From NCBI RefSeq assembly GCF_022965805.1, contig NW_027331428.1, positions 62,001 through 126,000 on the forward strand: a stretch of DNA of 64,000 nucleotides. Direction: 5' to 3'. Of this stretch, positions 24,081 to 64,000 are shown piece after piece; within the stretch, counting starts at the first letter, position 1, and each line of letters begins with the position of its first letter. Source of the DNA: Primulina eburnea (taxonomy: Eukaryota > Streptophyta > Magnoliopsida > Lamiales > Gesneriaceae). The translations under genes were made by a program, and so were the position numbers. A model generated the notes under the pieces. That model worked only from the letters and a program-made list of their open reading frames with translations. It was not told the DNA's origin and did no database searches.

Positions 24081-24123
24081 ATATGATTTCTTTTTGGCCT
24101 CTTTCCTCTCTTTTTCTTTTCCC

Positions 24124-26540: not shown

Positions 26541-26542
26541 AA

Positions 26543-28927: not shown

Positions 28928-29014
28928 TGTAAGTATTTATTCAGTTTTAGATTGTAATACTGTTTTAAATACTCTAATTGATTTATTCCAAGTTCGAGGA
29001 CGAACTTATGTCTT

Positions 29015-29027
29015 AGAAGGGGAGAAA
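29015..29027 (+). promoter_or_regulatory. Element A polypurine tract
   Basis: AGAAGGGGAGAAA directly before the 3' LTR (TGTAATGCCC at 29028). The 90 bases between the pol stop and this tract hold nothing else. Confidence 0.88.
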
Positions 29028-30863: not shown

Positions 30864-30922
30864 AAATATTTTAAAATAGTCACCAACATTTATCTGTTTT
30901 CACTTTTCAGTACAAATTGACA

Positions 30923-35886: not shown

Positions 35887-35889
35887 TGC

Positions 35890-35899
35890 AAGTGGGAGA
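35890..35899 (+). promoter_or_regulatory. Copia-2 polypurine tract
   Basis: AAGTGGGAGA one base before the 3' LTR start TGTTAGAGTAGG, four bases after the last RNase H stop. Confidence 0.85.
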
Positions 35900-35900
35900 T

Positions 35901-38036: not shown

Positions 38037-38996
38037 GTTTAGCCCATAAAGTCTTCCAAAATTAACACAAGAATTTAACATCGCGACCAGAAACAATAGC
38101 CCTAGGCATGCCATGCAACCTAACGACTTCTCTAAAGAACAAATCTGCAATGTTTGAAGCATCATCGGTTTTATGACAAGCTATAAAATGTGCCATCTTA
38201 GAGAATCTATCCACAACAACAAAAATAGAATCCCTCCCCTTCTTAGTCCTAGGCAACCCCAAAATAAAGTCCATAGAAATGTCAATCCAAGTTCTTTTTA
38301 AGAATAGCACGCAAAAGTGTATTGACAACTTCAGTTTGTCCATCCGTTTGAGGATGACAAGTAGTAGAAAACAACAATTTTGTGCCAGGTTTAGCCCATA
38401 AAGTCTTCCAAATGTAACTCAAGAATTTAACATCGCGACCAGAAACAATAGTCCTAAGCATGCCATGCAACCTAACGACTTCTCTAAAGAACAAATCCGC
38501 AATGTTTGAAGCATCATCGGTTTTATGACAAGCTATAAAATGTGCCATCTTAGAGAATCTATCCACAACAACAAAAATAGAATCCCTACCCTTATTAGTC
38601 CTAGGCAACCCCAAAATAAAGTCCATAGAAATGTCAATCCAAGTTCTTTTTAAGAACATCACGCAAAAGTGTTCCAAAGTACTATTGACAACTTCAGTTT
38701 GTCCATCCGTTTGAGGATGACAAGTAGTAGAAAACAACAATTTTGTGCCAGGTTTAGCCCATAAAGTCTTCCAAAAGTAACTCAAGAATTTAACATCGCG
38801 AACAGAAACAATAGTCATAGGCATGCCATGCAACCTAACGACTTCTCTAAAGAACAAATCCGCAATGTTTGAAGCATCATCGGTTTTATGACAAGCTATA
38901 AAATATGCCATCTAAGAGAATCTATCCACAACAACAAAAATAGAATTCCTCGCCTTCTTAGTCCTAGGCAACCCCGAAATAAAGTCCATAGAAATG

Positions 38997-41900
38997 TCAA
39001 TCCAAGTTCTTTTTAAGAATAGCACGCAAAAGTGTTCCCAAAGTTCTATTGACAACTTCAGTTTGTCCATCCGTTTGAGGATGACAAGTAGTAGAAAACA
39101 ACAATTTTGTGCAAAGTATAGCCCATAAAGTATTCCAAAAGTAACTCAAGAATTTAACATCGCGACCAGAAACATTAGTCCTTGGCATGCCATGTAACCG
39201 AACGACTTCTTTAAAGAACAAATCCGCAATGTTTGAAGCATCATTGGTTTTATGACAAGCTATAAATGTGCCATCTTAGAGAATCTATCCACAACAACAA
39301 AAATAGAATCCCTACCCTTCTTAGTCCTATGCAACCCCAAAATAAAGTCCATAGAAATGTCAATCCAAGTTTTTTTTAAGAATAACACGCAAAAGTGTTC
39401 CCAAAGTTCTATTGACAACTTCAGTTTGTCCATCCGTTTGAAGATGACAAGTAGTAGAATCCAACAATTTTGTGCTAGGTTTAGCCCATAAAGTCTTCCA
39501 AAAGTAACAAAAGAATTTAACATCGCGACCAGAAACAATAGTCCTAGGCATGCCATGCAACCTAACGACTTCTCTAAAGAACAAATCCGCAATGTTTGAA
39601 GCATCATCGGTTTTATGACAAGCTATAAAATGTGCCATCTAAAAAAATCTTTCCACAACAACAAAAATAGAATCCCTCCCCTTCTTAGTCCTAGGCAACC
39701 CCAAAATAAAGTCCATAAAATGTCAATCCAAGTTCTTTTTAAGAATAGCACGCACAAGTGTTCCCAAAGTTCTATTGACAACTTCAGTTTGTCCATCCGT
39801 TTGAGGATGACAAGTAGTAGAAAAAAAAAATTTTGTGCCAAGTTTAGCCCATAAAGTCTTCCAAAAGTAACTCAAGAATTTAACATCGCGACCAGAAACA
39901 ATAGTCCTAGGCATGCCATGCAACCTAACGACTTCTCTAAAGAACAAATCCGCAATGTTTGAGGCATCATGGGTTTTATGACAAGCTATAAAATGTGCCA
40001 TCTTAGAGAATCTATCCACAACAACAAAAATAGAATCCCTACCCTTCTTAGTCCTAGGCAACCCCAAAATAAAGTCCATAGAAATGTCAATCCAAGTTCT
40101 TTTTAAGAATAGCACGCAAAAGTGTTCCCAAAGTTCTATTGACAACTTCAGTTTGTCCATCCGTTTGAGGATGACAAGTAGTAGAAAACAACAATTTTGT
40201 GCCAAGTTTAGCCCATAAAGTCTTCCAAAAGTAACTCAAGAATTTAACATCGCGAACAGAAACAATAGTCCTAGGCATGCCATGCAACCTAACGACTTCT
40301 CTAAAGAACAAATCCGCAATGTTTGAAGCATCATCGGTTTTATGACAAGCTATAAAATGTGCCATCTCAAAGAATCTATCCACAACAACAAAAATAGAAT
40401 TCCTCGCCTTCTTAGTCCTAGGCAACCCCGAAATAAAGTCCATAGAAATGTCAATCCAAGTTCTTTTTAAGAATAGCACGCAAAAGTGTTCCCAAAGTTC
40501 TATTGACAACTTCAGTTTGTCCATCCGTTTGAGGATGACAAGTAGTAGAAAACAACAATTTTGTGCAAAGTATAGCCCATAAAGTATTCCAAAAGTAACT
40601 CAAGAATTTAACATCGCGACCAGAAACATTAGTCCTTGGCATGCCATGTAACCGAACGACTTCTTTAAAGAACAAATCCGCAATGTTTGAAGCATCATTG
40701 GTTTTATGACAAGCTATAAATGTGCCATCTTAGAGAATCTATCCACAACAACAAAAATAGAATCCCTACCCTTCTTAGTCCTATGCAACCCCAAAATAAA
40801 GTCCATAGAAATGTCAATCCAAGTTTTTTTAAGAATAACACGCAAAAGTGTTCCCAAAGTTCTATTGACAACTTCAGTTTGTCCATCCGTTTGAAGATGA
40901 CAAGTAGTAGAACCCAACAATTTTGTGCTAGGTTTAGCCCATAAAGTCTTCCAAAAGTAACAAAAGAATTTAACATCGCGACCAGAAACAATAGTCCTAG
41001 GCATGCCATGCAACCTAACGACTTCTCTAAAGAACAAATCCGCAATGTTTGAAGCATCATCGGTTTTATGACAAGCTATAAAATGTGCCATCTAAAAAAA
41101 TCTTCCACAACAACAAAAATAGAATCCCTCCCCTTCTTAGTCCTAGGCAACCCCAAAATAAAGTCCATAAAATGTCAATCCAAGTTCTTTTTAAGAATAG
41201 CACGCACAAGTGTTCCCAAAGTTCTATTGACAACTTCAGTTTGTCCATCCGTTTGAGGATGACAAGTAGTAGAAAAAAAAAATTTTGTGCCAAGTTTAGC
41301 CCATAAAGTCTTCCAAAAGTAACTCAAGAATTTAACATCGCGACCAGAAACAATAGTCCTAGGCATGCCATGCAACCTAACGACTTCTCTAAAGAACAAA
41401 TCCGCAATGTTTGAGGCATCATGGGTTTTATGACAAGCTATAAAATGTGCCATCTTAGAGAATCTATCCACAACAACAAAAATAGAATCCCTACCCTTCT
41501 TAGTCCTAGGCAACCCCAAAATAAAGTCCATAGAAATGTCAATCCAAGTTCTTTTTAAGAATAGCACGCAAAAGTGTTCCCAAAGTTCTATTGACAACTT
41601 CAGTTTGTCCATCCGTTTGAGGATGACAAGTAGTAGAAAACAACAATTTTGTGCCAAGTTTAGCCCATAAAGTCTTCCAAAAGTAACTCAGGAATTTAAC
41701 ATTCGCGACCAAAAACAATAGTCCTAGGCATGCCATGCAACCTAACGACTTCTCTAAAGAATAAATCCGCAATGTTTGAAGCATCATCGGTTTTATGACA
41801 AGCTATAAAATGTGCCATCTCAAAGAATCTATCCACAACAACAAAAATAGAATCCCTCCCCTTCTTAGTCCTAGGCAACCCCAAAATAAAGTCCATAGAA

Positions 41901-42620
41901 ATGTCAATCCAAGTTCTTTTTAAGAATAGCACGCAAAAGTGTTCCCAAAGTTCTATTGACAACTTCAGTTTGTCCATCCGTTTGAGGATGACAAGTAGTA
42001 GAAAACAACAATTTTGTGCAAAGTATAGCCCATAAAGTATTCCAAAAGTAACTCAAGAATTTAACATCGCGACCAGAAACATTAGTCCTTAGGCATGCCA
42101 TGTAACCTAACGACTTCTCTAAAGAACAAATCCGCAATGTTTGAAGCATCATCGGTTTATGACAAGCTATAAATGTGCCATCTTAGAGAATCTATCCACA
42201 ACAACAAAAATAGAATCCCTACCCTTCTTAGTCCTATGCAACCCCAAAATAAAGTCCATAGAAATGTCAATCCAAGTTTTTTTAAGAATAACACGCAAAA
42301 GTGTTCCCAAAGTTCTATTGACAACTTCAGTTTGTCCATCCGTTTGAAGATGACAAGTAGTAGAACCCAACAATTTTGTGCTAGGTTTAGCCCATAAAGT
42401 CTTCCAAAAGTAACAAAGAATTTAACATCGCGACCAGAAACAATAGTCCTAGGCATGCCATGCAACCTAACGACTTCTCTAAAGAACAAATCCGCAATGT
42501 TTGAAGCATCATCGGTTTTATGACAAGCTATAAAATGTGCCATCTAAAAAATCTTTCCACAACAACAAAAATAGAATCCCTCCCCTTCTTAGTCCTAGGC
42601 AACCCCAAAATAAAGTCCAT
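38997..42620 (-). repeat. Four-monomer higher-order repeat (about 1,453 bp) in the left block
   Basis: Four monomer variants recur in the same order. The first has ACATTAGTCC with a changed arm near 39170. The second has a shortened ATAAATGTGCC and CTAGGTTTAG. The third has CTAAAAAAATC and an A-run near 39825. The fourth has GAGGCATCATGGG. Matching points are 38997/40451, 39260/40704, 39623/41066 and 39723/41175. A third, partial and rearranged round runs from about 41904 to 42620. Confidence 0.85.
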
Positions 42621-42627
42621 AAAAATG

Positions 42628-45600
42628 TCAATCCAAGTTCTTTTTAAGAATAGCACGCAAAAGTGTTCCCAAAGTTCTATTGACAACTTCAGTTTGTCCA
42701 TCCGTTTGAGGATGACAAGTAGTAGAAAACAACAATTTTGTGCCAAGTTTAGCCCATAAAGTCTTCCAAAAGTAACTCAAGAATTTAACATCGCGACCAG
42801 AAACAATAGTCCTAGGCATGCCATGCAACCTAACGACTTCTCTAAAGAACAAATCCGCAATGTTTGAAGCATCATCGGTTTTATGACAAGCTATAAAATG
42901 TGCCATCTTAGAGAATCTATCCACAACAACAAAAATAGAATCCCTCCCCTTCTTAGTCCTAGGCAACCCCAAAATAAAGTCCATAGAAATGTCAATCCAA
43001 GTTCTTTTTAAGAATAGCACGCAAAAGTGTTCCCAAAGTTCTATTGACAACTTCAGTTTGTCCATCCGTTTGAGGATGACAAGTAGTAGAAAACAACAAT
43101 TTTGTGCCAAGTTTAGCCCATAAAGTCTTCCAAAAGTAACTCAAGAATTTAACATCGCGACCAGAAACAATAGTCCTAGGCATGCCATGCAACCTAACGA
43201 CTTCTCTAAAGAACAAATCCGCAATGTTTGAAGCATCATCGGTTTTATGACAAGCTATAAAATGTGCCATCTTAGAGAATCTATCCACAACAACAAAAAT
43301 AGAATCCCTCCCCTTCTTAGTCCTAGGCAACCCCAAAATAAAGTCCATAGAAATGTCAATCCAAGTTCTTTTTAAGAATAGCACGCAAAAGTGTTCCCAA
43401 AGTTCTATTGACAACTTCAGTTTGTCCATCCGTTTGAGGATGACAAGTAGTAGAAAACAACAATTTTGTGCCAAGTTTAGCCCATAAAGTCTTCCAAAAG
43501 TAACTCAAGAATTTAACATCGCGACCAGAAACAATAGTCCTAGGCATGCCATGCAACCTAACGACTTCTCTAAAGAACAAATCCGCAATGTTTGAAGCAT
43601 CATCGGTTTTATGACAAGCTATAAAATGTGCCATCTTAGAGAATCTATCCACAACAACAAAAATAGAATCCCTCCCCTTCTTAGTCCTAGGCAACCCCAA
43701 AATAAAGTCCATAGAAATGTCAATCCAAGTTCTTTTTAAGAATAGCACGCAAAAGTGTTCCCAAAGTTCTATTGACAACTTCAGTTTGTCCATCCGTTTG
43801 AGGATGACAAGTAGTAGAAAACAACAATTTTGTGCCAAGTTTAGCCCATAAAGTCTTCCAAAAGTAACTCAAGAATTTAACATCGCGACCAGAAACAATA
43901 GTCCTAGGCATGCCATGCAACCTAACGACTTCTCTAAAGAACAAATCCGCAATGTTTGAAGCATCATCGGTTTTATGACAAGCTATAAAATGTGCCATCT
44001 TAGAGAATCTATCCACAACAACAAAAATAGAATCCCTACCCTTCTTAGTCCTAGGCAACCCCAAAATAAAGTCCATAGAAATGTCAATCCAAGTTCTTTT
44101 TAAGAATAGCACGCAAAAGTGTTCCCAAAGTTCTATTGACAACTTCAGTTTGTCCATCCGTTTGAGGATGACAAGTAGTAGAAAACAACAATTTTGTGCC
44201 AAGTTTAGCCCATAAAGTCTTCCAAAAGTAACTCAAGAATTTAACATCGCGACCAGAAACAATAGTCCTAGGCATGCCATGCAACCTAACGACTTCTCTA
44301 AAGAACAAATCCGCAATGTTTGAAGCATCATCGGTTTTATGACAAGCTATAAAATGTGCCATCTTAGAGAATCTATCCACAACAACAAAAATAGAATCCC
44401 TCCCCTTCTTAGTCCTAGGCAACCCCAAAATAAAGTCCATAGAAATGTCAATCCAAGTTCTTTTTAAGAATAGCACGCAAAAGTGTTCCCAAAGTTCTAT
44501 TGACAACTTCAGTTTGTCCATCCGTTTGAGGATGACAAGTAGTAGAAAACAACAATTTTGTGCCAAGTTTAGCCCATAAAGTCTTCCAAAAGTAACTCAA
44601 GAATTTAACATCGCGACCAGAAACAATAGTCCTAGGCATGCCATGCAACCTAACGACTTCTCTAAAGAACAAATCCGCAATGTTTGAAGCATCATCGGTT
44701 TTATGACAAGCTATAAAATGTGCCATCTTAGAGAATCTATCCACAACAACAAAAATAGAATCCCTACCCTTCTTAGTCCTAGGCAACCCCAAAATAAAGT
44801 CCATAGAAATGTCAATCCAAGTTCTTTTTAAGAATAGCACGCAAAAGTGTTCCCAAAGTTCTATTGACAACTTCAGTTTGTCCATCCGTTTGAGGATGAC
44901 AAGTAGTAGAAAACAACAATTTTGTGCCAAGTTTAGCCCATAAAGTCTTCCAAAAGTAACTCAAGAATTTAACATCGCGACCAGAAACAATAGTCCTAGG
45001 CATGCCATGCAACCTAACGACTTCTCTAAAGAACAAATCCGCAATGTTTGAAGCATCATCGGTTTTATGACAAGCTATAAAATGTGCCATCTTAGAGAAT
45101 CTATCCACAACAACAAAAATAGAATCCCTCCCCTTCTTAGTCCTAGGCAACCCCAAAATAAAGTCCATAGAAATGTCAATCCAAGTTCTTTTTAAGAATA
45201 GCACGCAAAAGTGTTCCCAAAGTTCTATTGACAACTTCAGTTTGTCCATCCGTTTGAGGATGACAAGTAGTAGAAAACAACAATTTTGTGCCAAGTTTAG
45301 CCCATAAAGTATTCCAAAAGTAACTCAAGAATTTAACATCGCGACCAGAAACAATAGTCCTAGGCATGCCATGCAACCTAACGACTTCTCTAAAGAACAA
45401 ATCCGCAATGTTTGAAGCATCATCGGTTTTATGACAAGCTATAAAATGTGCCATCTTAGAGAATCTATCCACAACAACAAAAATAGAATCCCTCCCCTTC
45501 TTAGTCCTAGGCAACCCCAAAATAAAGTCCATAGAAATGTCAATCCAAGTTCTTTTTAAGAATAGCACGCAAAAGTGTTCCCAAAGTTCTATTGACAACT

Positions 45601-46995
45601 TCAGTTTGTCCATCCGTTTGAGGATGACAAGTAGTAGAAAACAACAATTTTGTGCCAAGTTTAGCCCATAAAGTCTTCCAAAAGTAACTCAAGAATTTAA
45701 CATCGCGACCAGAAACAATAGTCCTAGGCATGCCATGCAACCTAACGACTTCTCTAAAGAACAAATCCGCAATGTTTGAAGCATCATCGGTTTTATGACA
45801 AGCTATAAAATGTGCCATCTTAGAGAATCTATCCACAACAACAAAAATAGAATCCCTCCCCTTCTTAGTCCTAGGCAACCCCAAAATAAAGTCCATAGAA
45901 ATGTCAATCCAAGTTCTTTTTAAGAATAGCACGCAAAAGTGTTCCCAAAGTTCTATTGACAACTTCAGTTTGTCCATCCGTTTGAGGATGACAAGTAGTA
46001 GAAAACAACAATTTTGTGCCAAGTTTAGCCCATAAAGTCTTCCAAAAGTAACTCAAGAATTTAACATCGCGACCAGAAACAATAGTCCTAGGCATGCCAT
46101 GCAACCTAACGACTTCTCTAAAGAACAAATCCGCAATGTTTGAAGCATCATCGGTTTTATGACAAGCTATAAAATGTGCCATCTTAGAGAATCTATCCAC
46201 AACAACAAAAATAGAATCCCTCCCCTTCTTAGTCCTAGGCAACCCCAAAATAAAGTCCATAGAAATGTCAATCCAAGTTCTTTTTAAGAATAGCACGCAA
46301 AAGTGTTCCCAAAGTTCTATTGACAACTTCAGTTTGTCCATCCGTTTGAGGATGACAAGTAGTAGAAAACAACAATTTTGTGCCAAGTTTAGCCCATAAA
46401 GTCTTCCAAAAGTAACTCAAGAATTTAACATCGCGACCAGAAACAATAGTCCTAGGCATGCCATGCAACCTAACGACTTCTCTAAAGAACAAATCCGCAA
46501 TGTTTGAAGCATCATCGGTTTTATGACAAGCTATAAAATGTGCCATCTTAGAGAATCTATCCACAACAACAAAAATAGAATCCCTCCCCTTCTTAGTCCT
46601 AGGCAACCCCAAAATAAAGTCCATAGAAATGTCAATCCAAGTTCTTTTTAAGAATAGCACGCAAAAGTGTTCCCAAAGTTCTATTGACAACTTCAGTTTG
46701 TCCATCCGTTTGAGGATGACAAGTAGTAGAAAACAACAATTTTGTGCCAAGTTTAGCCCATAAAGTCTTCCAAAAGTAACTCAAGAATTTAACATCGCGA
46801 CCAGAAACAATAGTCCTAGGCATGCCATGCAACCTAACGACTTCTCTAAAGAACAAATCCGCAATGTTTGAAGCATCATCGGTTTTATGACAAGCTATAA
46901 AATGTGCCATCTTAGAGAATCTATCCACAACAACAAAATAGAATCCCTCCCCTTCTTAGTCCTAGGCAACCCCAAAATAAAGTCCATAGAAATGT
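42628..46995 (-). repeat. Homogenised core of 12 nearly identical 364-bp monomers
   Basis: Twelve consecutive monomers have exactly 364-bp spacing and almost the same sequence. The only differences I noticed are CCCTACCC for CCCTCCCC in two monomers (near 44036 and 44764) and GTATTCC for GTCTTCC near 45309. This is far less variation than in the flanking monomers, so it is likely the most recently amplified part. Confidence 0.88.
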
Positions 46996-48569
46996 CAATC
47001 CAAGTTCTTTTTAAGAATAGCACGCAAAAGTGTTCCCAAAGTTCTATTGACAACTTCAGTTTGTCCATCCGTTTGAGGATGACAAGTAGTAGAAAACAAC
47101 AATTTTGTGCCAAGTTTAGCCCATAAAGTCTTCCAAAAGTAACACAAGAATTTAACATCGCGACTAAAAACAATAGTCCTAGGCATGCCATGCAACCTAA
47201 CGACTTCTCTAAAGAACAAATCCGCAATGTTTGAAGCATCATCGGTTTTATGACAAGCTATAAAATATGCCATCTTTGAGAATCTATCCACTACAACAAA
47301 AATAGAATCCATCGCCTTCTTAGTCCTAGGCAACCCCAAAATAAAGTCCATAGAAATGTCAATCCAAGTTCTTTTTAAGAATAGCACGCCAAAGTGTTCC
47401 CAAAGTTCTATTGACAACTTCAGTTTGTCCAACCGTTTGAGGATGACAAGTAGTAGAAAAACAACAATTTTGTGCCAAGTTTAGCCCATAAAGTATTCCA
47501 AAATTAACTCAAGAATTTAACATCGCGACCAGAAACATTAGTCCTAGGCATGCCATGCAACCTGTAGTGACCCGTTCCAGAATCACCTACTAATCAGAAC
47601 TTAAGCATGCAATTAACTTAATAAAACTGAATCAGATAAACAGCGGAAAAAACAACATATACAGCCCGATCGAATCAGTAAGTACGAATACTAAAACAAC
47701 CAAATCAAACTAAATCCCAAGAATAAAATACCAGCAACTACAGGTCAACCCCTGCTAGCTCCCTGTCCTCTCCCTCCTGGACCGTCCAACCTGAGACCTG
47801 CCCCATCGAATAGGGTGTCCAAAACAGAGATAAACCGAGGACGTGAGCATAAAACGCTCAGTACCGAAAGAATGAGTATACAAGACTATGACATGCATGT
47901 ATGCAAAATGTACTGGATACCAGGGTCTGGGTATAACGAAAAACTGCTCAGGCAAATGACGTCAAGGTATGTAGCACTCTGCGCCGTCGCACCAGGAGGT
48001 GGCTCCCATACCATAAACCTGTGGATATACCGGTATCCTGACCACCGTCGGCCAACGGGGTCCAACCATCCACAACAACCGAGGGCTGAGCACCCTCTGA
48101 ACAGGCTATCTCAAAAGATAAACAGGCCCAACATGATTATGCAAATGCCGCATAATAAACCATGCATCATATGTCAGATAATAATGCAACACATAAACAT
48201 GCAACACATAGTAAAGCATACTCAACCAGGATATCTCGGATAGTACTTCCGTACCTCAAACCAGTAGATCCTAGTAATCAGCCCTAGAATCAAGCCTACA
48301 ATCCAAGTGATACCATATCACTAAACCACATCTAAAAGCCTTAACTAGACTAATAGATACTTCCAAATCTCAAGGGAACCTAGAACCATACCTGCGTCCG
48401 TAGTCAGCCCACTGATGCCGCTAGCTCCCAACTAGAGCACAGCTCCGCTACAAAGCCAGTAGCTCCCTGCTAGTGCCCGAACCTCGGGAAAAGCTAGAAA
48501 CCCATCAGAAACGACTAAAACGCTCTGGAACTCTCGGAATTGGTAATTGAAAAGTGAAGCCTCGCGCCT

Positions 48570-48579
48570 CTATTTATAG
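48570..48579 (-). promoter_or_regulatory. TATA box of element E 3' LTR
   Basis: CTATAAATAG on the minus strand, directly after the GC-rich cluster (48580-48850). The same box is in the 5' LTR at 54564-54573, where it would drive transcription of the element. Confidence 0.78.
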
Positions 48580-48850
48580 ACGACGATCGGACGATCCGAT
48601 CCACTTCGGAAGATCCGATCCTGTGCACTTCGGACGATCCGATCCACTTCGGACGTTCCGAACTCTGCATGTCTTCCACGTGTCCAGCCACCTGTCTTCG
48701 GACGATCCGAACCTCTTCGGACGATCCGAACCCTGACACGGTCTACTGTTGACAAGACTCGGTCTGACACCGAACCGAACGGTCCATCCGAACCCACTTC
48801 GGACGATCCGAACCTCTTCGGACGGTCCGATCCTGGTTCGTTCCTTCCGA
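48580..48850 (-). repeat. GC-rich motif cluster in U3 of element E 3' LTR
   Basis: About ten copies of TTCGGATCGTCCGAAG or close variants, with core CGGACGATCCG, are separated by short unique spacers. The duplicate lies at 54574-54844. Placed just upstream of the TATA box, they are in the position of promoter or enhancer repeats. That function is inference. Confidence 0.88.
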
Positions 48851-48906
48851 ACTCGCAGAATATAATTAATCCAATAATTACTCAATTTAGGCATCGGGAT
48901 ACTACA

Positions 48907-48918
48907 TTCTCCCCCTCT
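48907..48918 (-). promoter_or_regulatory. Element E polypurine tract
   Basis: The minus strand reads AGAGGGGGAGAA directly before the LTR start TGTAGTATCCC. The 129 bases between it and the Gag-Pol stop (49048) hold nothing else that I can support. Confidence 0.88.
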
Positions 48919-49047
48919 AAAAAGGATTTCGTCCGCGAAATCGAGTCTGAAGAATAACAATTCTGAACAATCAATACATTCATCTCAAGAATGAATTACA
49001 AATTGAAAGCCCAACTGAAATTACAATCATAACTGAAAATGCTACAA

Positions 49048-52000: not shown

Positions 52001-53475
52001 TCCCCGCCCGACTCTAAGGCACGACAGGCTTTCAGAGCAGAAACCACAGGCATCGGGGGTCGCGCTCCCTCTCCATAGAAAAACCAACTGTCGCCCTCCA
52101 CTGGACGAAACTGCACGAACTTCTGGTAACAGTCCACAGTAGCTCTATACACAGTCAGCACATCTATTCCCAGAATGCAATCAAAATCCTCCATCGCAAG
52201 AATCATCAAATTAGCAGTTAAGATATTACCCTCAAACTCTAGAGGACAACCCATCACTAGACGTTTAGCTAACACCGAATGACCCATCGGTGTGGAAACA
52301 GATACCACAATGTCCAAAGAAGTGAAAGGTAAAGCATGACGCTTAGCAAACCTCGCAGATATAAATGAATGCGATGCACCAGTATCAATGAGAACGTAAG
52401 CAGGTAATCCACATAAATTACAAATACCTGCAATAACTCTCTCGTTCTCCTCAGCAGCCTGATCCTGGTTAAGAGCAAAGACCTGCCCTTGAGTACGCGG
52501 TCGGAGGTTAGAGCCCTGAGTAGACTGTCCCTGCTGTGGCCTCTGATGAACTGAAGCCTGAGAACCAGATCCTGATCCTCCACCCATCTGTGGACAATCT
52601 CTCTTCATGTGGCCCATCTCACCGCACCTGAAACAAGCACCCGCAACTCTGCGACAACGCTCTGTCGGATGGTCCTTCCCGCAATGCTGACACGGGCCCT
52701 TCTTCTTCCCAAAATGGTGAACTCCTCCAGATCCAGAGGAAGAAGAAGTAGATCCAGCCTTCTTAAATGATTGGGCACGGGGACCCAAAGAACTAGTAGG
52801 ACGAGCAGACTGCATGGCTCGACCCCTCAGCAAACTGCCCTCTGCCTGGCGACAACGGTTCACAAGGCCCTCATACGACGTCGGATCATCACAGACCACG
52901 ACCCGATCATAAATCTCCTGATTGAGGCCCTGAAGAAAATGATTATACTTGGCCACCGCATTGTCACTGACGTGCGGAACATATGGGAGCAACTCAAAGA
53001 ACTTCTGCTGATACTCATCAACAGACAAACTCCCCTGCTTCAGATTGATCAACTCAATCGCCTTGGTCTGCAGAAGAGCTGGCGGAAAGTAAAGCAGCAT
53101 GAAAGCAGCTCGGAAATCGGCCCAAAGAACTCGGCCCTGACGCTGAACTATCGGTGCAGAGGTAGACCTCCACCACTTACGTGCACCGCCCTCCAGCAAG
53201 AAATCAAGGGTATCCATCTGCTGCTCCGCCGAGCACTGGAAAGACTTGAAACAGCTCTCCATCCTCTCAAGCCAGTTCTCCGCAACATCCGGAGTCTCGC
53301 CGCCCGAAAGAGGTTTCGGCCCCATCTGCAAGAACCTATGCATACTGAAACTCCGAGGCTCATCTCGTCGGTGTGGACGACGTTCCCGATGCTCTCGACG
53401 ACGCTCCCGATCGTCGCGGTCTCCCCAGCGTCCCACGCTGCCATGACTACTAGCATCGTCGTCAAAACCAGACAT
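49048..53475 (-). CDS. Element E Gag-Pol polyprotein (1,475 aa), uninterrupted
   Basis: The start is the ATG at 53475 ([10 protein letters not shown]), 67 bases after the primer site. Gag spans about 45-230. Zinc knuckles are at 262-274 ([13 protein letters not shown]) and 281-294 ([14 protein letters not shown]). The protease DTG is at 364-366. RT spans about 540-790 with FIDD at 698-701. RNase H has Asp 847, Glu 884, Asp 909 and Asp 952. The integrase zinc residues are His 1062, His 1069, Cys 1099 and Cys 1102. The DD35E core has Asp 1132, Asp 1193 and Glu 1229. The C-terminal chromodomain-like tail reads [19 protein letters not shown], then [11 protein letters not shown]. All the catalytic residues I looked for are present and the frame has no stop. 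By family knowledge it is cut by its own protease and acts in cytoplasmic particles and in the nucleus. Confidence 0.96.
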
Positions 53476-53541
53476 CTCTACAAAAAGTCACCAGAGATTA
53501 GACCCAAAAGAACAGTTCTAAATCCCAAAATCTTAATGCAT

Positions 53542-53553
53542 GCTCTGATACCA
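53542..53553 (-). promoter_or_regulatory. Element E primer-binding site
   Basis: TGGTATCAGAGC on the minus strand, four bases after the 5' LTR end (CACTACA). It is the exact initiator-methionine tRNA primer site. Confidence 0.93.
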
Positions 53554-53557
53554 TAAA

Positions 53558-54900
53558 TGTAGTGACCCGTTCCAGAATCACCTACTAATCAGAACTTAAG
53601 CATGCAATTAACTTAATAAAACTGAATCAGATAAACAGCGGAAAAACAACATATACAGCCCGATCGAATCAGTAAGTACGAATACTAAAACAACCAAATC
53701 AAACTAAATCCCAAGAATAAAATACCAGCAACTACAGGTCAACCCCTGCTAGCTCCCTGTCCTCTCCCTCCTGGACCGTCCAACCTGAGACCTGCCCCAT
53801 CGAATAGGGTGTCCAAAACAGAGATAAACCGAGGACGTGAGCATAAAACGCTCAGTACCGAAAGAATGAGTATACAAGACTATGACATGCATGTATGCAA
53901 AATGTACTGGATACCAGGGTCTGGGTATAACGAAAAACTGCTCAGGCAAATGACGTCAAGGTATGTAGCACTCTGCGCCGTCGCACCAGGAGGTGGCTCC
54001 CATACCATAAACCTGTGGATATACCGGTATCCTGACCACCGTCGGCCAACGGGGTCCAACCATCCACAACAACCGAGGGCTGAGCACCCTCTGAACAGGC
54101 TATCTCAAAAGATAAACAGGCCCAACATGATTATGCAAATGCCGCATAATAAACCATGCATCATATGTCAGATAATAATGCAACACATAAACATGCAACA
54201 CATAGTAAAGCATACTCAACCAGGATATCTCGGATAGTACTTCCGTACCTCAAACCAGTAGATCCTAGTAATCAGCCCTAGAATCAAGCCTACAATCCAA
54301 GTGATACCATATCACTAAACCACATCTAAAAGCCTTAACTAGACTAATAGATACTTCCAAATCTCAAGGGAACCTAGAACCATACCTGCGTCCGTAGTCA
54401 GCCCACTGATGCCGCTAGCTCCCAACTAGAGCACAGCTCCGCTACAAAGCCAGTAGCTCCCTGCTAGTGCCCGAACCTCGGGAAAAGCTAGAAACCCATC
54501 AGAAACGACTAAAACGCTCTGGAACTCTCGGAATTGGTAATTGAAAAGTGAAGCCTCGCGCCTCTATTTATAGACGACGATCGGACGATCCGATCCACTT
54601 CGGAAGATCCGATCCTGTGCACTTCGGACGATCCGATCCACTTCGGACGTTCCGAACTCTGCATGTCTTCCACGTGTCCAGCCACCTGTCTTCGGACGAT
54701 CCGAACCTCTTCGGACGATCCGAACCCTGACACGGTCTACTGTTGACAAGACTCGGTCTGACACCGAACCGAACGGTCCATCCGAACCCACTTCGGACGA
54801 TCCGAACCTCTTCGGACGGTCCGATCCTGGTTCGTTCCTCCCGAACTCGCAGAATATAATTAATCCAATAATTACTCAATTTAGGCATCGGGATACTACA
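53558..54900 (-). repeat. Element E 5' LTR (1,343 bp)
   Basis: Same ends as the 3' copy (TGTAGTATCCC at 54900). It contains the TATA box (54564-54573) and the GC-rich cluster (54574-54844). It is followed on the plus strand by CAACC and the resumed satellite. Confidence 0.96.
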
Positions 54901-54905
54901 CAACC

Positions 54906-56700
54906 TAACGACTTCTCTAAAGAACAAATCCGCAATGTTTGAAGCATCATCGGTTTTATGACAAGCTATAAAATGTGCCATCTTAGAGAATCTATCCACA
55001 ACAACAAAAATAGAATCCCTACCCTTATTAGTCCTAGGCAAACCCAAAATAAAGTCCATAGAAATGTCAATCCAAGTTCTTTTTAAGAATAGCACGCAAA
55101 AGTGTTCCCAAAGTTCTATTGACAACTTCAGTTTGTCCATCCGTTTGAGGATGACAAGTAGTAGAAAACAACAATTTTGTGCCAAGTTTAGCCCATAAAG
55201 TCTTCCAAAAGTAACTCAAGAATTTAACATCGCGACCAGAAACAATAGTCCTAGGCATGCCATGCAACCTAACGACTTCTCTAAAGAACAAATCCGCAAT
55301 GTTTGAAGCATCATCGGTTTTATGACAAGCTATAAAATGTGCCATCTTAGAGAATCTATCCACAACAACAAAAATAGAATCCCTCCCCTTCTTAGTCCTA
55401 GGCAACCCCAAAATAAAGTCATAGAAATGTCAATCCAAGTTCTTTTTAAGAATAGCACGCAAAAGTGTTCCCAAAGTTCTATTGACAACTTCAGTTTGTC
55501 CATCCGTTTGAGGATGACAAGTAGTAGAAAACAACAATTTTGTGCCAAGTTTAGCCCATAAAGTCTTCCAAAAGTAACTCAAGAATTTAACATCGCGACC
55601 AGAAACAATAGTCCTAGGCATGCCATGCAACCTAACGACTTCTCTAAAGAACAAATCCGCAATGTTTGAAGCATCATCGGTTTTATGACAAGCTATAAAA
55701 TGTGCCATCTTAGAGAATCTATCCACAACAACAAAAATAGAATCCCTCCCCTTCTTAGTCCTAGGCAACCCCAAAATAAAGTCCATAGAAATGTCAATCC
55801 AAGTTCTTTTTAAGAATAGCACGCAAAAGTGTTCCCAAAGTTCTATTGACAACTTCAGTTTGTCCATCCGTTTGAGGATGACAAGTAGTAGAAAACAACA
55901 ATTTTGTGCCAAGTTTAGCCCATAAAGTCTTCCAAAAGTAACTCAAGAATTTAACATCGCGACCAGAAACAATAGTCCTAGGCATGCCATGCAACCTAAC
56001 GACTTCTCTAAAGAACAAATCCGCCATGTTTGAAGCATCATCGGTTTTATGACAAGCTATAAAATGTGCCATCTTAGAGAATCTATCCACAACAACAAAA
56101 ATAGAATCCCTCCCTTATTAGTCCTAGGCAACCCCAAAATAAAGTCCATAGAAATGTCAATCCAAGTTCTTTTTAAGAATAGCACGCAAAAGTGTTCCGA
56201 AAGTTCTATTGACAACTTCAGTTTGTCCATCCGTTTGAGGATGACAAGTAGTAGAAAACAACAATTTTGTGCCAAGGTTTAGCCCATAAAGTACTTCCAA
56301 AAGTAACTCAAGAATTTAACATCGCGACCAGAACTAATAGTCCTAGGCATGCCATGCAACCTAACGACTTCTCTAAAGAACAAATCCGCAATGTTTGAAG
56401 CATCATCGGTTTTATGACAAGCTATAAAATATGCCATCTTAGAGAATCTATCCACAACAACAAAAATAGAATCCCTCGCCTTCTTAGTCCTAGGCAACCA
56501 CGAAATAAAGTCCATAGAAATGTCAATCAAATTCTTTTTAAGAATAGCACGCAAAAGTGTTCCCAAAGTTCTATTGACAACTTCAGTTTGTCCATCCGTT
56601 TGATGATGACAAGTAGTAGAAAACAACAATTTTGTGCCAAGTATTAGCCCATAAAGTATTCCAAAAGTAACTCAAGAATTTAACATCGCGACCAGAAACA
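54906..56700 (-). repeat. 14-monomer higher-order duplication in the right block, copy 1
   Basis: Rare monomer variants recur 5,100 bases further on (60006-61800): GGCAAACCCAAAAT (55037/60136), CCGCCATGTT (56021/61121), GTACTTCC (56291/61391), TTGATGATGAC and GTATTAGCCC (offset 5,101). 5,100 bp is 14 monomers. The copies also differ at several sites, so this is not a recent exact duplication. Confidence 0.75.
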
Positions 56701-59700
56701 ATAGTCCTAGGCATGCCATGTAACCTAACGACTTCTCTAAAGAACAAATCCGCAATGTTTGAAGCATCATCGGTTTTATGACAAGCTATAAAATGTGCCA
56801 TCTTAGAGAATCTATCCACAACAACAAAAATAGAATCCCTCCCCTTCTTAGTCCTATGCAACCCCAAAATAAAGTCCATAGAAATGTCAATCCAAGTTCT
56901 TTTTAAGAATAGCACGCAAAAGTGTTCCCAAAGTTCTATTGACAACTTCAGTTTGTCCATCCGTTTGAGGATGACAAGTAGTAGAAAAACAACAATTTAG
57001 TGCCAAGTTTAGCCCATAAAGTATTCCAAAAGTAACTCAAGAATTTAACATCGCGACCAGAAACAATTAGTCCTAGGCATGCCATGCAACCTAACGACTT
57101 TCTAAAGAACAAATCCGCCATGTTTGAAGCATCATCGGTTTTATGACAAGCTATAAAATGTGCCATCTTAGAGAATCTATCCACAACAACAAAAATAGAA
57201 TCCCTCCCCTTCTTAGTCCTAGGCAACCCCAAAATAAAGTCCATAGAAATGTCAATCCAAGTTCTTTTTAAGAATAGCACGCAAAAGTGTTCCCAAAGTT
57301 CTATTGACAACTTCAGTTTGTCCATCCGTTTGAGGATGACAAGTAGTAGAAAACAACAATTTTGTGCAAGGTTTAGCCCATAAAGTCTTCCAAAAGTAAC
57401 TCAAGAATTTAACATCGCGACCAGAAACAATAGTCCTAGGCATGCCATGCAACCTAACGACTTCTCTAAAGAACAAATCCGCAATGTTTGAAGCATCATC
57501 GGTTTTATGACAAGCTATAAAATGTGCCATCTTAGAGAATCTATCCACAACCACAAAAATAGAATCCCTCCCCTTCTTAGTCCTAGGCAACCCCAAAATA
57601 AAGTCCATAGAAATGTCAATCCAAGTTCTTTTTAAGAATAGCACGCAAAAGTGTTCCCAAAGTTCTATTGACAACTTCAGTTTGTCCATCCGTTTGAGGA
57701 TGACAAGTAGTAGAAACCAACAATTTTGTGCCAAGTTTAGCCCATAAAGTATTCCAAAAGTAACTCAAGAATTTAACATCGCGACCAGAAGTATTAGTCC
57801 TAGGCATGCCATGCAACCTAACGACTTCTCTAAAGAACAAATCCGCAATGTTTGAAGCATCATCGGTTTTATGACAAGTTATAAATGTGCCATCTTAGAG
57901 AATCTATCCACAACAACAAAAATAGAATCCCTACCCTTATTAGTCCTAGGCAACCCCATAATAAAGTCCATAGAAATGTCAATCCAAGTTTTTTTTAAGA
58001 ATAGCACGCAAAAGTGTTCCAAAGTACTATTGACAACTTCAGTTTGTCCATCCGTTTGAGGATGACAAGTAGTAGAAAACAACAATTTTGTGCCAGGTTT
58101 AGCCCATAAAGTCTTCCAAAAGTAACTCAAGAATTTAACATCGCGAACAGAAACAATAGTCATAGGCATGCCATGCAACCTAACGACTTCTCTAAAGAAC
58201 AAATCCGCAATGTTTGAATGCATCATCGGTTTTATGACAAGCTATAAAATGTGCCATCTTAGAGAATCTATCCACAACAACAAAAATAGAATCCCTCACC
58301 CTTCTTAGTCCTAGGCAACCCCAAAATAAAGTCCATAGAAATGTCAATCCAAGTTCTTTTTAAGAATAGCACGCAAAAGTGTTCCCAAAGTTCTATTGAC
58401 AACTTCAGTTTGTCCATCCGTTTGAGGATGACAAGTAGTAGAAAAAAACAATTTTGTGCCAAGTTTAGCCCATAAAGTCTTCCAAAAGTAACTCAAGAAT
58501 TTAACATCGCGACCAGAAACAATAGTCCTAGGCATGCCATGCAACCAAACGACTTCTCTAAAGAACAAATCCGCAATGTTTGAAGCATCATCGGTTTTAT
58601 GACAAGCTATAAAATGTGCCATCTTAGAGAATCTATCCACAACAACAAAAATAGAATCCCTACCCTTCTTAGTCCTAGGCAACCCCAAAATAAAGTCCAT
58701 AGAAATGTCAATCCAAGTTCTTTTTAAGAATAGCACGCAAAAGTGTTCCCAAAGTTCTATTGACAACTTCAGTTTGTCCATCCGTTTGAGGATGACAAGT
58801 AGTAGAAAACAACAATTTTGTGTCAAGTTTAGCCCATAAAGTCTTCCAAAAGTAACTCAAGAATTTAACATCGCGACCAGAAACAATAGTCCTAGGCATG
58901 CCATGCAACCTAACGACTTCTCTAAAGAACAAATCCGCAATGTTTGAAGCATCATCGGTTTTATGACAAGCTATAAAATGTGCCATCTTAGAGAATCTAT
59001 CCACAACAACAAAAATAGAATCCCTCCCCTTCTTAGTCCTAGGCAACCCCAAAATAAAGTCCATAGAAATGTCAATCCAAGTTCTTTTTAAGAATAGCAC
59101 GCAAAAGTGTTCCCAAAGTTCTATTGACAACTTCAGTTTGTCCATCCGTTTGAGGATGACAAGTAGTAGAAAACAACAATTTTGTGCCAAGTTTAGCCCA
59201 TAAAGTATTCCAAAAGTAACTCAAGAATTTAACATCGCGACCAGAAACAATAGTCCTAGGCATGCCATGCAACCTAACGACTTCTCTAAAGAACAAATCC
59301 GCAATGTTTGAAGCATCATCGGTTTTATGACAAGCTATAAAATGTGCCATCTTAGAGAATCTATCCACAACAACAAAAATAGAATCCCTCCCCTTCTTAG
59401 TCCTAGGCAACCTCAAAATAAAGTCCATAGAAATGTCAATCCAAGTTCTTTTTAAGAATAGCACGCAAAAGTGTTCCCAAAGTTCTATTGACAACTTCAG
59501 TTTGTCCATCCGTTTGAGGATGACAAGTAGTAGAAAACAACAATTTTGTGCCAAGTTTAGCCCATAAAGTCTTCCAAAAGTAACTCAAGAATTTAACATC
59601 GCGACCAGAAACAATAGTCCTAGGCATGCCATGCAACCTAACGACTTCTCTAAAGAACAAATCCGCAATGTTTGAAGCATCATCGGTTTTATGACAAGCT

Positions 59701-60005
59701 ATAAAATGTGCCATCTTAGAGAATCTATCCACAACAACAAAAATAGAATCCATCCCCTTCTTAGTCCTAGGCAACCCCAAAATAAAGTCCATAGAAATGT
59801 CAATCCAAGTTCTTTTTAAGAATAGCACGCAAAAGTGTTCCCAAAGTTCTATTGACAACTTCAGTTTGTCCATCCGTTTGAGGATGACAAGTAGTAGAAA
59901 AACAACAATTTTGTGCCAAGTTTAGCCCATAAAGTATTCCAAAAGTAACTCAAGAATTTAACATCGCGACCAGAAACAATTAGTCCTAGGCATGCCATGC
60001 AACCT

Positions 60006-61800
60006 AACGACTTCTCTAAAGAACAAATCCGCAATGTTTGAAGCATCATCGGTTTTATGACAAGCTATAAAATGTGCCATCTTAGAGAATCTATCCACAA
60101 CAACAAAAATAGAATCCCTACCCTTATTAGTCCTAGGCAAACCCAAAATAAAGTCCATAGAAATGTCAATCCAAGTTCTTTTTAAGAATAGCACGCAAAA
60201 GTGTTCCCAAAGTTCTATTGACAACTTCAGTTTGTCCATCCGTTTGAGGATGACAAGTAGTAGAAAACAACAATTTTGTGCCAAGTTTAGCCCATAAAGT
60301 CTTCCAAAAGTAACTCAAGAATTTAACATCGCGACCAGAAACAATAGTCCTAGGCATGCCATGCAACCTAACGACTTCTCTAAAGAACAAATCCGCAATG
60401 TTTGAAGCATCATCGGTTTTATGACAAGCTATAAAATGTGCCATCTTAGAGAATCTATCCACAACAACAAAAATAGAATCCCTCCCCTTCTTAGTCCTAG
60501 GCAACCACAAAATAAAGTCCATAGAAATGTCAATCCAAGTTCTTTTTAAGAATAGCACGCAAAAGTGTTCCCAAAGTTCTATTGACAACTTCAGTTTGTC
60601 CATCCGTTTGAGGATGACAAGTAGTAGAAAACAACAATTTTGTGCCAAGTTTAGCCCATAAAGTATTCCAAAAGTAACTCAAGAATTTAACATCGCGACC
60701 AGAAACATTAGTCCTAGGCATGCCATGCAACCTAACGACTTCTCTAAAGAACAAATCCGCAATGTTTGAAGCATCATCGGTTTTATGACAAGCTATAAAT
60801 GTGCCATCTTAGAGAATCTATCCACAACAACAAAAATAGAATCCCTACCCTTCTTAGTCCTAGGCAACCCCAAAATAAAGTCCATAGAAATGTCAATCCA
60901 AGTTCTTTTTAAGAATAGCACGCAAAAGTGTTCCCAAAGTTCTATTGACAACTTCAGTTTGTCCATCCGTTTGAGGATGACAAGTAGTAGAAACCAACAA
61001 TATTTGTGCCAAGTTTAGCCCATAAAGTCTTCCAAAAGTAACTCAAGAATTTAACATCGCGACCAGAAACAATAGTCCTAGGCATGCCATGCAACCTAAC
61101 GACTTCTCTAAAGAACAAATCCGCCATGTTTGAAGCATCATCGGTTTTATGACAAGCTATAAAATGTGCCATCTTAGAGAATCTATCCACAACAACAAAA
61201 ATAGAATCCCTACCCTTATTAGTCCTAGGCAACCCCAAAATAAAGTCCATAGAAATTTCAATCCAAGTTCTTTTTAAGAATAGCACGCAAAAGTGTTCCC
61301 AAAGTTCTATTGACAACTTCAGTTTGTCCATCCGTTTGAGGATGACAAGTAGTAGAAAACAACAATTTTGTGCCAGGTTTAGCCCATAAAGTACTTCCAA
61401 AAGTAACTCAAGAATTTAACATCGCGACCAGAAACAATAGTCTTAGGCATGCCATGCAACCTAACGACTTCTCTAAAGAACAAATCCGCAATGTTTGAAG
61501 CATCATCGGTTTTATGACAAGCTATAAAATATGCCATCTTAGAGAATCTATCCACAACAACAAAAATAGAATCCCTCGCCTTCTTAGTCCTAGGCAACCA
61601 CGAAATAAAGTCCATAGAAATGTCAATCAAAGTTCTTTTTAAGAATAGCACGCAAAAGTGTTCCCAAAGTTCTATTGACAACTTCAGTTTGTCCATCCGT
61701 TTGATGATGACAAGTAGTAGAAAACAACAATTTTGTGCCAAGTATTAGCCCATAAAGTATTCCAAAAGTAACTCAAGAATTTAACATCGCGACCAGAAAC
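60006..61800 (-). repeat. 14-monomer higher-order duplication in the right block, copy 2
   Basis: Partner of 54906-56700. It shares the rare variants listed there at a constant offset of 5,100-5,101 bp. It has its own variants, for example ATAAATGTGCC near 60796 and CCAACAATATTTG near 60993. Confidence 0.75.
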
Positions 61801-63764
61801 AATAGTCCTAGGCATGCCATGCAACCTAACGACTTCTCTAAAGAACAAATCCGCAATGTTTGAAGCATCATCGGTTTTATGACAAGCTATAAAATGTGCC
61901 ATCTTAGAGAATCTATCCACAACAACAAAAATAGAATCCCTACCCTTCTTAGTCCTAGGCAACCCCAAAATAAAGTCCATAGAAATGTCAATCCAAGTTC
62001 TTTTTAAGAATAGCACGCAAAAGTGTTCCCAAAGTTCTATTGACAACTTCAGTTTGTCCATCCGTTTGAGGATGACAAGTAGTAGAAAACAACAATTTTG
62101 TGCCAAGTTTAGCCCATAAAGTATTCCAAAAGTAACTCAAGAATTTAACATCGCGACCAGAAACATTAGTCCTTAGGCATGCCATGCAACCTAACGACTT
62201 CTCTAAAGAACAAATCCGCCATGTTTGAAGCATCATCGGTTTTATGACAAGCTATAAAATGTGCCATCTAGAGAATCTATCCACAACAACAAAAATAGAA
62301 TCCCTCCCCTTCTTAGTCCTAGGCAACCCCAAAATAAAGTCCATAGAAATGTCAATCCAAGTTCTTTTTAAGAATAGCACGCAAAAGTGTTCCCAAAGTT
62401 CTATTGACAACTTCAGTTTGTCCATCCGTTTGAGGATGACAAGTAGTAGAAAACAACAATTTTGTGCCAGGTTTAGCCCATAAAGTCTTCCAAAACTAAC
62501 TCAAGAATTTAACATCGCGACCAGAAACAATAGTCCTAGGCATGCCATGCAACCTAATGACTTCTCTAAAGAACAAATCCGCAATGTTTGAAGCATCATC
62601 GGTTTTATGACAAGCTATAAAATGTGCCATCTTAGAGAATCTATCCACAACAACAAAAATAGAATCCCTACCCTTATTAGTCCTAGGCAACCCCAAAATA
62701 AAGTCCATAGAAATGTCAATCCAAGTTCTTTTTAAGAATAGCACGCAAAAGTGTTCCCAAAGTTCTATTGACAACTTCAGTTTGTCCATCCGTTTGAGGA
62801 TGACAAGTAGTAGAAAACAACAATTTTGTGCCAGGTTTAGCCCATAAAGTCTTCCAAAAGTAACTCAAGAATTTAACATCGCGACCAGAAACAATAGTCC
62901 TAGGCATGCCATGCAACCTAACGACTTCTCTAAAGAACAAATCCGCAATGTTTGAAGCATCATCGGTTTTATGACAAGCTATAAAATGTGTCATCTTAGA
63001 GAATCTATCCACAACAACAAAAATAGAATCCCTCGCCTTCTTAGTCCTAGGCAACCCCAAAATAAAATCCATAGAAATCTCAATCCAAGTTCTTTTTAAG
63101 AATAGGACGCAAAATTGTTCCCAAAGTTCTATTGACAACTTCAGTTTGTCCATCCGTTTGAGGATGACAAGTAGTAGAAACCAACAATTTTGTGCCAAGT
63201 TTAGCCCATAAAGTCTTCCAAAATTAACACAAGAATTTAACATCGCGACCAGAAACAATAGTCCTAGGCATGCCATGCAACCTAACGACTTCTCTAAAGA
63301 ACAAATCCGCAATGTTTGAGGCATCATGGGTTTTATGACAAGCTATAAAATGTGCCATCTTAGAGAATCTATCCACAACAACAAAAATAGAATCCCTACC
63401 CTTCTTAGTCCTAGGCAACCCCAAAATAAAGTCCATAGAAATGTCAATCCAAGTTCTTTTTAAGAATAACACGCAAAAGTGTTCCCAAAGTTCTATTGAC
63501 AACTTCAGTTTGTCCATCCGTTTGAGGATGACAAGTAGTAGAAAAACAACAATTTTGTGCCAAGTTTAGCCCATAAAGTATTCCAAAAGTAACTCAAGAA
63601 TTTAACATCGCGACCAGAAACATTAGTCCTAGGCATGCCATGCAACCTAACGACTTCTCTAAAGAACAAATCCGCAATATTTGAAGCATTATCGGTTTTA
63701 TGACAAGCTATAAATGTGCCATCTTAGAGAATCTATCCACAACAACAAAAATAGAATCCCTACC

Positions 63765-64000
63765 TGTAATGCCCGAGATTTAATTATTAAAATCAGACGT
63801 TGATTAATTGTCACGATTGAACTCAAATGAACCGATATGACAAGGTTGGGCGTCGTTGCAATTGTTAGCCAAGTTTTTTTGGACAGAGACCTCGGCGCTC
63901 GAGCGGTAGAAAAGCACCGCCCGAGCGCCAATGCATCGCAAATTATTGTTCGGACAGAAGGTTCGGCGCCCGGGCGGTAGATTTTGACTGCCCGAGCGCC
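63765..64000 (+). mobile_element. Element F: start of an LTR inserted in the satellite (cut by the window edge)
   Basis: TGTAATGCCCGAG at 63765 interrupts a satellite monomer after CTACC (63760-63764). The start resembles the element A LTR (TGTAATGCCC), so the plus strand is the likely coding orientation. From about 63888 there are GC-rich inverted units (GGCGCTCGAGCGGT, ACCGCCCGAGCGCC, GGCGCCCGGGCGGT), again in the upstream part of the LTR. Whether it is a full element or a solo LTR cannot be seen. Confidence 0.78.

What the first reader, a model, noticed from the sequence alone, without database searches (positions are those of the whole stretch)
38037..63764. A satellite DNA whose whole 364-bp monomer is a retrotransposon integrase core
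About 50 head-to-tail monomers each encode, on the minus strand, the stretch from just before the first catalytic Asp to just after the catalytic Glu of a Ty3/gypsy integrase, with no LTR or spacer sequence. Tandem repeats derived from centromeric retrotransposons are known from other plants, but those I recall come mostly from LTR or untranslated regions. A satellite made only of integrase catalytic core is unusual and may be undescribed.
Basis: partly seen in the sequence, partly recalled or inferred. Interest (0 to 1): 0.9.

Follow-up and report, generated by a model that had tools for sequence, protein, structure and literature searches.

The report
Tandem repeat from retrotransposon integrase core
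A piece of a plant retrotransposon's integrase gene, with one catalytic residue already lost, has been copied head to tail about 50 times into non-coding repeat DNA, which suggests that satellite-like DNA can arise from the protein-coding core of a mobile element.

Summary
51 head-to-tail monomers (50 complete; consensus 364 bp; mean pairwise identity 97.5%) fill 38037-47562 and 54906-63764, interrupted by one young LTR element (47563-54900) with a perfect 5-bp target duplication. Each monomer is an integrase-core segment read on the minus strand. A broken relative with CRM-clade features lies in the same window (20413-27463). The two share 83.6% of bases but 116 of 121 residues (dN 0.02-0.03, dS 0.84-1.75): the segment was under strong protein selection before capture. 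It is not now. The frame breaks at each 364-bp junction; the second catalytic Asp is missing in 51 of 51 monomers but present in 114 of 120 homologues; variants among monomers fit neutrality. A 4-monomer higher-order repeat, a likely 14-monomer block duplication and 12 near-identical monomers in a row point to growth by unequal exchange or conversion. Both ends abut LTR-like sequence, so true length, genome copy number and chromosomal place are unknown. Ten literature searches (nine aimed at such repeats) showed LTR-, UTR- and gag-derived relatives but no integrase-derived one; the library is open-licence only. New variant of a known kind.

The parts
38037..47562 (-). Left part of the array: monomers 1-26 and the first part of monomer 27 (integrase read on the minus strand)
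47558..47562 (.). CAACC, left copy of the target-site duplication (array sequence)
47563..54900 (-). Young LTR element (Ty3 type by eye) inserted in monomer 27; LTRs 47563-48906 and 53558-54900 differ by 1 transition in 1343 aligned bases; one stop-to-stop ORF of 1479 aa (49048-53487)
54901..54905 (.). CAACC, right copy of the target-site duplication
54906..63764 (-). Right part of the array: rest of monomer 27 to partial monomer 51
38389..42746 (-). Monomers 2-13: 4-monomer higher-order repeat (about 1.45 kb period)
42747..47113 (-). Monomers 14-25: 12 near-identical monomers (mean 99.9% to the consensus)
43720..44232 (-). Example ORF over one junction (170 aa): 47 aa out of frame, then 122 aa of integrase core
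43888..43890 (-). Codon of the second catalytic position in monomer 17 (GGT, Gly, where most homologues have Asp)
21853..22219 (-). Homologous integrase segment in the CRM-like element, 83.6% nucleotide identity over 120 codons
20413..27463 (-). CRM-like element with broken pol: LTRs 20413-21330 and 26543-27463, TSD AAGCC, LTR ends TGATG/CATCA; a relative of the founder, not the founder
35901..38036 (+). LTR (3' LTR by inference) that abuts the left edge of the array
63765..64000 (+). LTR-like start (TGTAATGCCCGAG...), by eye, that abuts the right edge of the array; its partner lies outside the window

Best explanation
This is non-coding tandem-repeat DNA made from a fragment of pol. A 364-bp segment of the integrase core of a CRM-lineage retrotransposon copy, probably one whose second catalytic Asp was already mutated, was duplicated head to tail by illegitimate recombination between short matches at its ends (inferred). 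The duplication then grew by unequal exchange and/or gene conversion, giving block duplications and a homogenised stretch (the pattern is shown, the process inferred). Since amplification the sequence has drifted with no sign of selection on the protein (shown). Later LTR retrotransposons inserted into it: one inside, with a target-site duplication (shown), and probably one at each edge (inferred).
For: The same junction in the 50 complete monomers: 42 of 50 have the identical 18 bases around it, 8 have point changes or a one-base gap, so one founding event. Homology to an integrase segment in the same window, dN 0.020-0.027 against dS 0.84-1.75 by three methods: the founder lineage was under protein selection. 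Second Asp missing in 51/51 monomers (47 Gly, 3 Val, 1 Ser) against 114/120 homologues with Asp: most simply lost before amplification. Replacement share among monomer variants 172/218 cells and 67/85 distinct, expected 0.797 from the same variants' base-change spectrum. A 3-bp match AAG at the two ends of the segment in the CRM-like relative. Lag-4 sharing of variants reached by 0 of 1000 shuffles; pairs at lag 4 in monomers 2-13 are 97.3-100% identical against a mean of 95.1% for pairs whose lag is not a multiple of 4. 14-monomer duplication: 26 of 10000 shuffles reach it. Monomers 14-25 are 99.9% to consensus, monomers 1-13 97.2%.
Against: The relative is only 83.6% identical, so the true ends of the founder are inferred. 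A match of 3 bp or more is expected at about 5% of random junctions (my arithmetic, not a call). The first step cannot be told apart from rolling-circle copying. Homogenisation could have spread the loss of the Asp after amplification. Over the whole array 20 lags were tested: besides lag 4, lags 2 and 14 were reached by 49 and 38 of 1000 shuffles, which is weak after 20 tests. The 14-monomer block was chosen after seeing the list, and 5 of its 10 pairs share no variant. Both array edges abut LTR-like sequence, so the original borders are not seen.
Confidence: 0.72

Rival explanations
1. The 364-bp segment was first excised as a small DNA circle, multiplied by rolling-circle copying and reinserted as an array.
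For: It would leave the same single junction and a run of near-identical monomers such as 14-25.
Against: It does not by itself explain the 4-monomer and 14-monomer block structure, which needs later exchange anyway. No circle data.
Confidence: 0.17
2. The repeat arose inside a retrotransposon during reverse transcription (template jumping), as proposed for Ogre 3'UTR repeats, and the array seen is a remnant inside or spread by an element.
For: Precedent: Lathyrus satellites from Ogre 3'UTR repeats (PMC7004042, passages). Both array edges here are LTR-like ends.
Against: The 38036 edge looks like a 3' LTR end (a PBS-like stretch, by eye, follows the matching copy at 13567), so the array would lie outside that element. 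On the right an LTR-like start follows at 63765. In the sequence read next to the array (1036 bases left; 236 bases right) I saw no other integrase sequence.
Confidence: 0.08
3. Assembly artefact: the array is a duplication or joining error.
For: 12 near-identical monomers in a row, and no raw reads were available.
Against: 116 distinct variants, 60 of them private, in 50 monomers, with ordered block structure. An LTR element sits inside one monomer with a perfect TSD and unbroken monomer phase.
Confidence: 0.03
4. A tandem coding gene: the array encodes a repeated integrase-core protein that is kept by selection.
For: 23 of 50 integrase segments tested are full length and stop-free (one of the 50 was mis-cut to 2 bases).
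Against: 364 mod 3 = 1, so the frame breaks at a 364-bp junction. Second catalytic Asp lost in 51/51. Replacement share close to the neutral expectation.
Confidence: 0.01

Closest known systems
CRM1TR and CRM4TR of maize (Sharma et al. 2013, PMC3648361; passages seen, part of the abstract among them)
   Same: Tandem repeats wholly derived from CRM-clade retrotransposons; illegitimate recombination then conversion proposed; heterologous retrotransposons inserted in the arrays.
   Different: Those monomers are LTR plus UTR; this one is integrase coding core only.
250-bp centromeric repeat of wheat and rye, gag-like (original paper not read; known here from one passage in PMC3648361)
   Same: A tandem repeat with similarity to a coding part of a CRM-type element (Cereba).
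   Different: gag, 53% amino acid similarity as quoted there; here the integrase core, with 116 of 121 residues shared with a relative in the same window.
Ogre-derived satellites of Lathyrus sativus (PMC7004042; passages)
   Same: Satellite arrays from LTR-retrotransposon sequence, with elements inserted in expanded arrays.
   Different: They come from pre-existing short tandem repeats in the 3'UTR downstream of gag-pol, not from coding sequence.
CRM clade of Ty3/gypsy chromoviruses (PMC3059260, passages; PMC6317226, passages)
   Same: Likely source lineage: the relative in the window has TGATG/CATCA LTR ends and a CR-motif-like stretch in its LTR.
   Different: The array is a 364-bp fragment; it has no LTR, gag, RT or targeting domain.

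Membership tests
Retrotransposon-derived tandem repeat | Head-to-tail monomers homologous to one defined part of a retrotransposon | tested here: met
Retrotransposon-derived tandem repeat | Source segment present singly in an element of the same genome | tested here: inconclusive
   A relative of the source, 83.6% identical, lies singly at 21853-22219; the founder itself was not found
LTR/UTR-type CRM tandem repeat (CRM1TR, CRM4TR) | Monomer made of LTR and UTR | tested here: not met
   monomer is wholly integrase core
Satellite DNA | Long array of near-identical tandem monomers | tested here: met
   51 monomers, 97.5% mean identity, 18.4 kb seen
Satellite DNA | High genome copy number, many or very long arrays | not tested
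   The genome search gave no answer in 8 tries
Satellite DNA | Heterochromatic or centromeric location | not testable with these tools
   needs FISH or ChIP
Functional Ty3 integrase | D,D(35)E triad | tested here: not met
   second Asp 0 of 51; first Asp in 49 of 51 (monomer 28 has a gap, partial monomer 51 does not reach it) and Glu in 50 of 51 (monomer 51 does not reach it); 35 residues between the second position and Glu
CRM clade (the relative at 20413-27463) | LTR ends TGATG and T/CATCA | tested here: met
   the feature is given for most CRM elements in PMC3059260
CRM clade (the relative at 20413-27463) | tRNA-Met primer binding site | tested here: inconclusive
   TTGGTATTAGAGCTTTAGG next to the 5' LTR, read; the tRNA-Met complement is recalled, not computed
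CRM clade group A (the relative at 20413-27463) | CR motif encoded in the 3' LTR | tested here: inconclusive
   GPITRGRLKRFKEAL in the LTR, in the frame of INT but after an in-frame stop; TRARAR/K motif from PMC11302176; compared by eye
CRM clade (the relative at 20413-27463) | No ordinary chromodomain after the integrase | tested here: inconclusive
   No chromodomain hit, but the same call gave none for the integrase of the neighbouring Ty3-type element (27401-28927) either, so the scan says little
CRM clade (the relative at 20413-27463) | Phylogenetic placement by RT or INT | not tested
   no named reference sequences were at hand

The most novel reading that the evidence does not exclude
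The array is one member of an abundant centromeric or pericentromeric satellite made only from the integrase core of a centromere-targeting retrotransposon, the first of its kind. Because it keeps matches of small-RNA length to the parent family, its transcripts could feed silencing of the same retrotransposons. In the window relative the longest exact match to the consensus is 21 nt (one shared 21-mer, two overlapping 20-mers, no 24-mer); the true parent should match better.
Probability: 0.1. Interest if true: 0.75.

Novelty: new variant of a known kind. Interest (0 to 1): 0.48.

Why it matters
The accounts I saw draw retrotransposon-derived satellites mainly from LTRs, UTRs and pre-existing 3'UTR repeats (passages of PMC3648361; PMC7004042; review PMC12692304). 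A satellite-like array made only of catalytic-core coding sequence suggests that a stretch long held by protein selection can serve too. The switch from strong protein selection to neutral drift is readable in one window, which makes founder, junction and growth steps separately testable.

Tried and rejected
Coding function of the array: rejected (frame break, lost Asp, variants near the neutral expectation). Artefact: thought unlikely. The same satellite in public data: the 120 homologues listed (of 7950 passing; only 7996 candidates were scored) cover 67-79% of the query, which fits the integrase part, except P0086 at 97%, which on reading is an ordinary integrase. A search with the junction-side first 50 residues alone found no candidate. 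An exact 29-base junction word has 0 matches in viral contigs; a protein scan there gave 3 pattern matches, none confirmed as a relative. Neither is a plant genome set, so this says little about plants. WW-dinucleotide periods of the consensus were looked at without a control and not used. Fixed-anchor counting found 26 anchors, missed many monomers and was replaced.

Literature: 10 searches; one search was about CRM elements and one search returned nothing. Searches matched 1333 and 377 papers, of which 15 and 20 were listed, so the absence of an integrase-derived satellite in print is not proven. PMC3480287 (potato centromeres) is not held; the wheat gag-repeat paper was not read. All ten papers opened were seen as passages only; only 12 of 21, 12 of 22, 12 of 32 and 12 of 26 places were shown.
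Full report
What is there. TRF reports period 364 at 38036-47563 and 54901-63761. A wrap-around alignment to an iterated consensus gives 50 complete monomers plus one partial. Identity to the consensus is 95.1-100%, and mean pairwise identity of the 50 is 97.5% (90.9-100). Of the 49 uninterrupted complete monomers, 29 are exactly 364 nt. The two blocks are one array. Monomer 27 runs across the 7.3-kb element at 47563-54900 with unbroken phase; the element begins TGTAGTGACC, ends ACTACA, and is flanked by CAACC on both sides. Its LTRs differ by one transition in 1343 aligned bases, and it carries one stop-to-stop ORF of 1479 aa; I call it Ty3 type by eye.

What the monomer is. On the minus strand one frame reads WIDISMDF...SGRDVKF...[11 protein letters not shown]...AILKKNL, 122 residues. 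It runs from 6 codons before the first catalytic Asp to 18 codons after the Glu. Pfam rve matches the example ORF at E 1e-7, exactly at the curated cut-off. There are 35 residues between the second catalytic position and the Glu, as in D,D(35)E. The second Asp is replaced in 51 of 51 monomers (47 Gly, 3 Val, 1 Ser). Among the 120 homologues listed, 114 have Asp there (5 Asn, 1 Tyr), 119 have the first Asp and 109 the Glu. As 364 is 3x121+1, a junction of that length shifts the frame. 23 of 50 segments tested are full length and stop-free, one of the 50 having been mis-cut by the script.

Where it came from. The self-comparison shows one related integrase segment of this kind outside the array, at 21853-22219. 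It belongs to an element at 20413-27463 with LTRs 98.6% alike, TSD AAGCC and LTR ends TGATG...CATCA. Its ORF pieces give gag, protease, RT and H2C2 hits, and an rve hit just under the cut-off (31.9 against 32.6 bits); its pol is broken by stops. No chromodomain hit was seen, but the same call gave none for the neighbouring Ty3-type integrase (27401-28927) either, so this says little. [quoted passage not shown] Here the stretch GPITRGRLKRFKEAL lies in the LTR in the frame of INT, after an in-frame stop. It resembles the TRARAR/K motif named in PMC11302176 (passages); this comparison is by eye. I call the element CRM-like. A tree was not made.

Selection before and after. Over 120 codons, satellite consensus and relative share 83.6% of bases, with dN 0.020, 0.027 and 0.021 and dS 1.73, 0.84 and 1.75 (NG86, LWL85, YN00). 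Of 60 differences over 121 codons, 53 fall in synonymous codons and 49 at third positions; 116 of 121 residues agree, one of the five others being the relative's stop. The line leading to the founder was therefore under strong protein selection, and this relative is not the founder itself. Among monomers, 172 of 218 variant cells and 67 of 85 distinct variants change the protein, against an expected share of 0.797 computed from the same variants' base-change spectrum. So the repeat now evolves as DNA only, as far as this shows.

How it grew. The consensus junction reads ...ATCCAAG|TTCTT...; 42 of 50 complete monomers have the identical 18 bases around it and 8 have small changes. The relative has CCAAGG at one end of the segment and TTAAGTTC at the other, a 3-bp match of AAG. 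A match of 3 bp or more is expected at about 5% of random junctions (arithmetic of mine), so this is weak support for illegitimate recombination. Of 116 distinct variants, 56 are shared between monomers. Of 20 lags tested, sharing at lag 4 exceeds all 1000 shuffles; lags 2 and 14 are reached by 49 and 38 of 1000 and are weak. In monomers 2-13, pairs four apart are 97.3-100% identical, while pairs whose lag is not a multiple of four average 95.1%. Monomers 27-36 share 17 variants with 41-50, in 5 of 10 pairs, reached in 26 of 10000 shuffles; that block was picked after seeing the list. Monomers 14-25 average 99.9% to the consensus, monomers 1-13 97.2%. This is what unequal exchange or conversion leaves. 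A circle-based first step is not excluded.

Edges. The left edge at 38036 is the end of an LTR (35901-38036). Its partner, 12795-13566, is followed by a PBS-like stretch (by eye) at 13567. The right edge at 63765 begins TGTAATGCCCGAG, like an LTR start; its other LTR is not in the window. The array may therefore continue beyond both, and its true borders are not seen. By LTR divergence the inner element (K 0.0007) is younger than the left one (K 0.0118, 772 bp); I give no years because the species and its rate are unknown.

Novelty. Papers seen as passages describe CRM tandem repeats from LTR-UTR and, second hand, a gag-like 250-bp repeat in wheat and rye (PMC3648361), Ogre 3'UTR satellites (PMC7004042), LTR-derived repeats in jujube (PMC12596083) and reviews (PMC4107277; PMC12692304). 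The passages shown for Agave (PMC9956584) and spinach (PMC6337768) name no integrase-derived satellite. None of 10 searches showed one in its list, but the library holds open-licence papers only and long lists were not read through. I file it as a new variant: a retrotransposon-derived tandem repeat whose source is the catalytic core.

What is not known. Species, copy number, chromosomal place, transcription and chromatin. The own-genome search did not complete. That the host is a plant is inferred by eye from the retrotransposon types and was not tested.

Noticed in passing
47563-54900: Very young LTR element with an ORF of 1479 aa that looks like a whole gag-pol; its LTRs carry short GC-rich repeats (TCGGACGATCCGA).
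   Followed up: partly
1-38036: Nested pile of LTR elements (types by eye). A copia-type element (parts 12795-15202 and 30865-38036) holds a Ty3-type element (15203-30864), which holds the CRM-like one (20413-27463). A further element (6098-12796) and a reversed copia-type copy (about 1-6097) sit at its 5' LTR, so the start of that LTR probably lies outside the window.
   Followed up: partly
6392-6452, 12474-12516, 15414-15492, 29238-29296: Short repeats of the type CACCGCGGGTGCGGT recur in the LTRs of two different elements.
   Followed up: no
20860-21145: The CRM-like LTR contains repeated CACGGACCCCGTG-like motifs.
   Followed up: no
63765-64000: Start of another LTR-like sequence with repeated GGCGCTCGAGCGGTAG / CCGCCCGAGCGCC-like motifs, cut by the window end.
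   Followed up: no
38037-38388: Monomer 1, next to the LTR, lacks 12 bases; no other monomer lacks more than 3 within its span.
   Followed up: no
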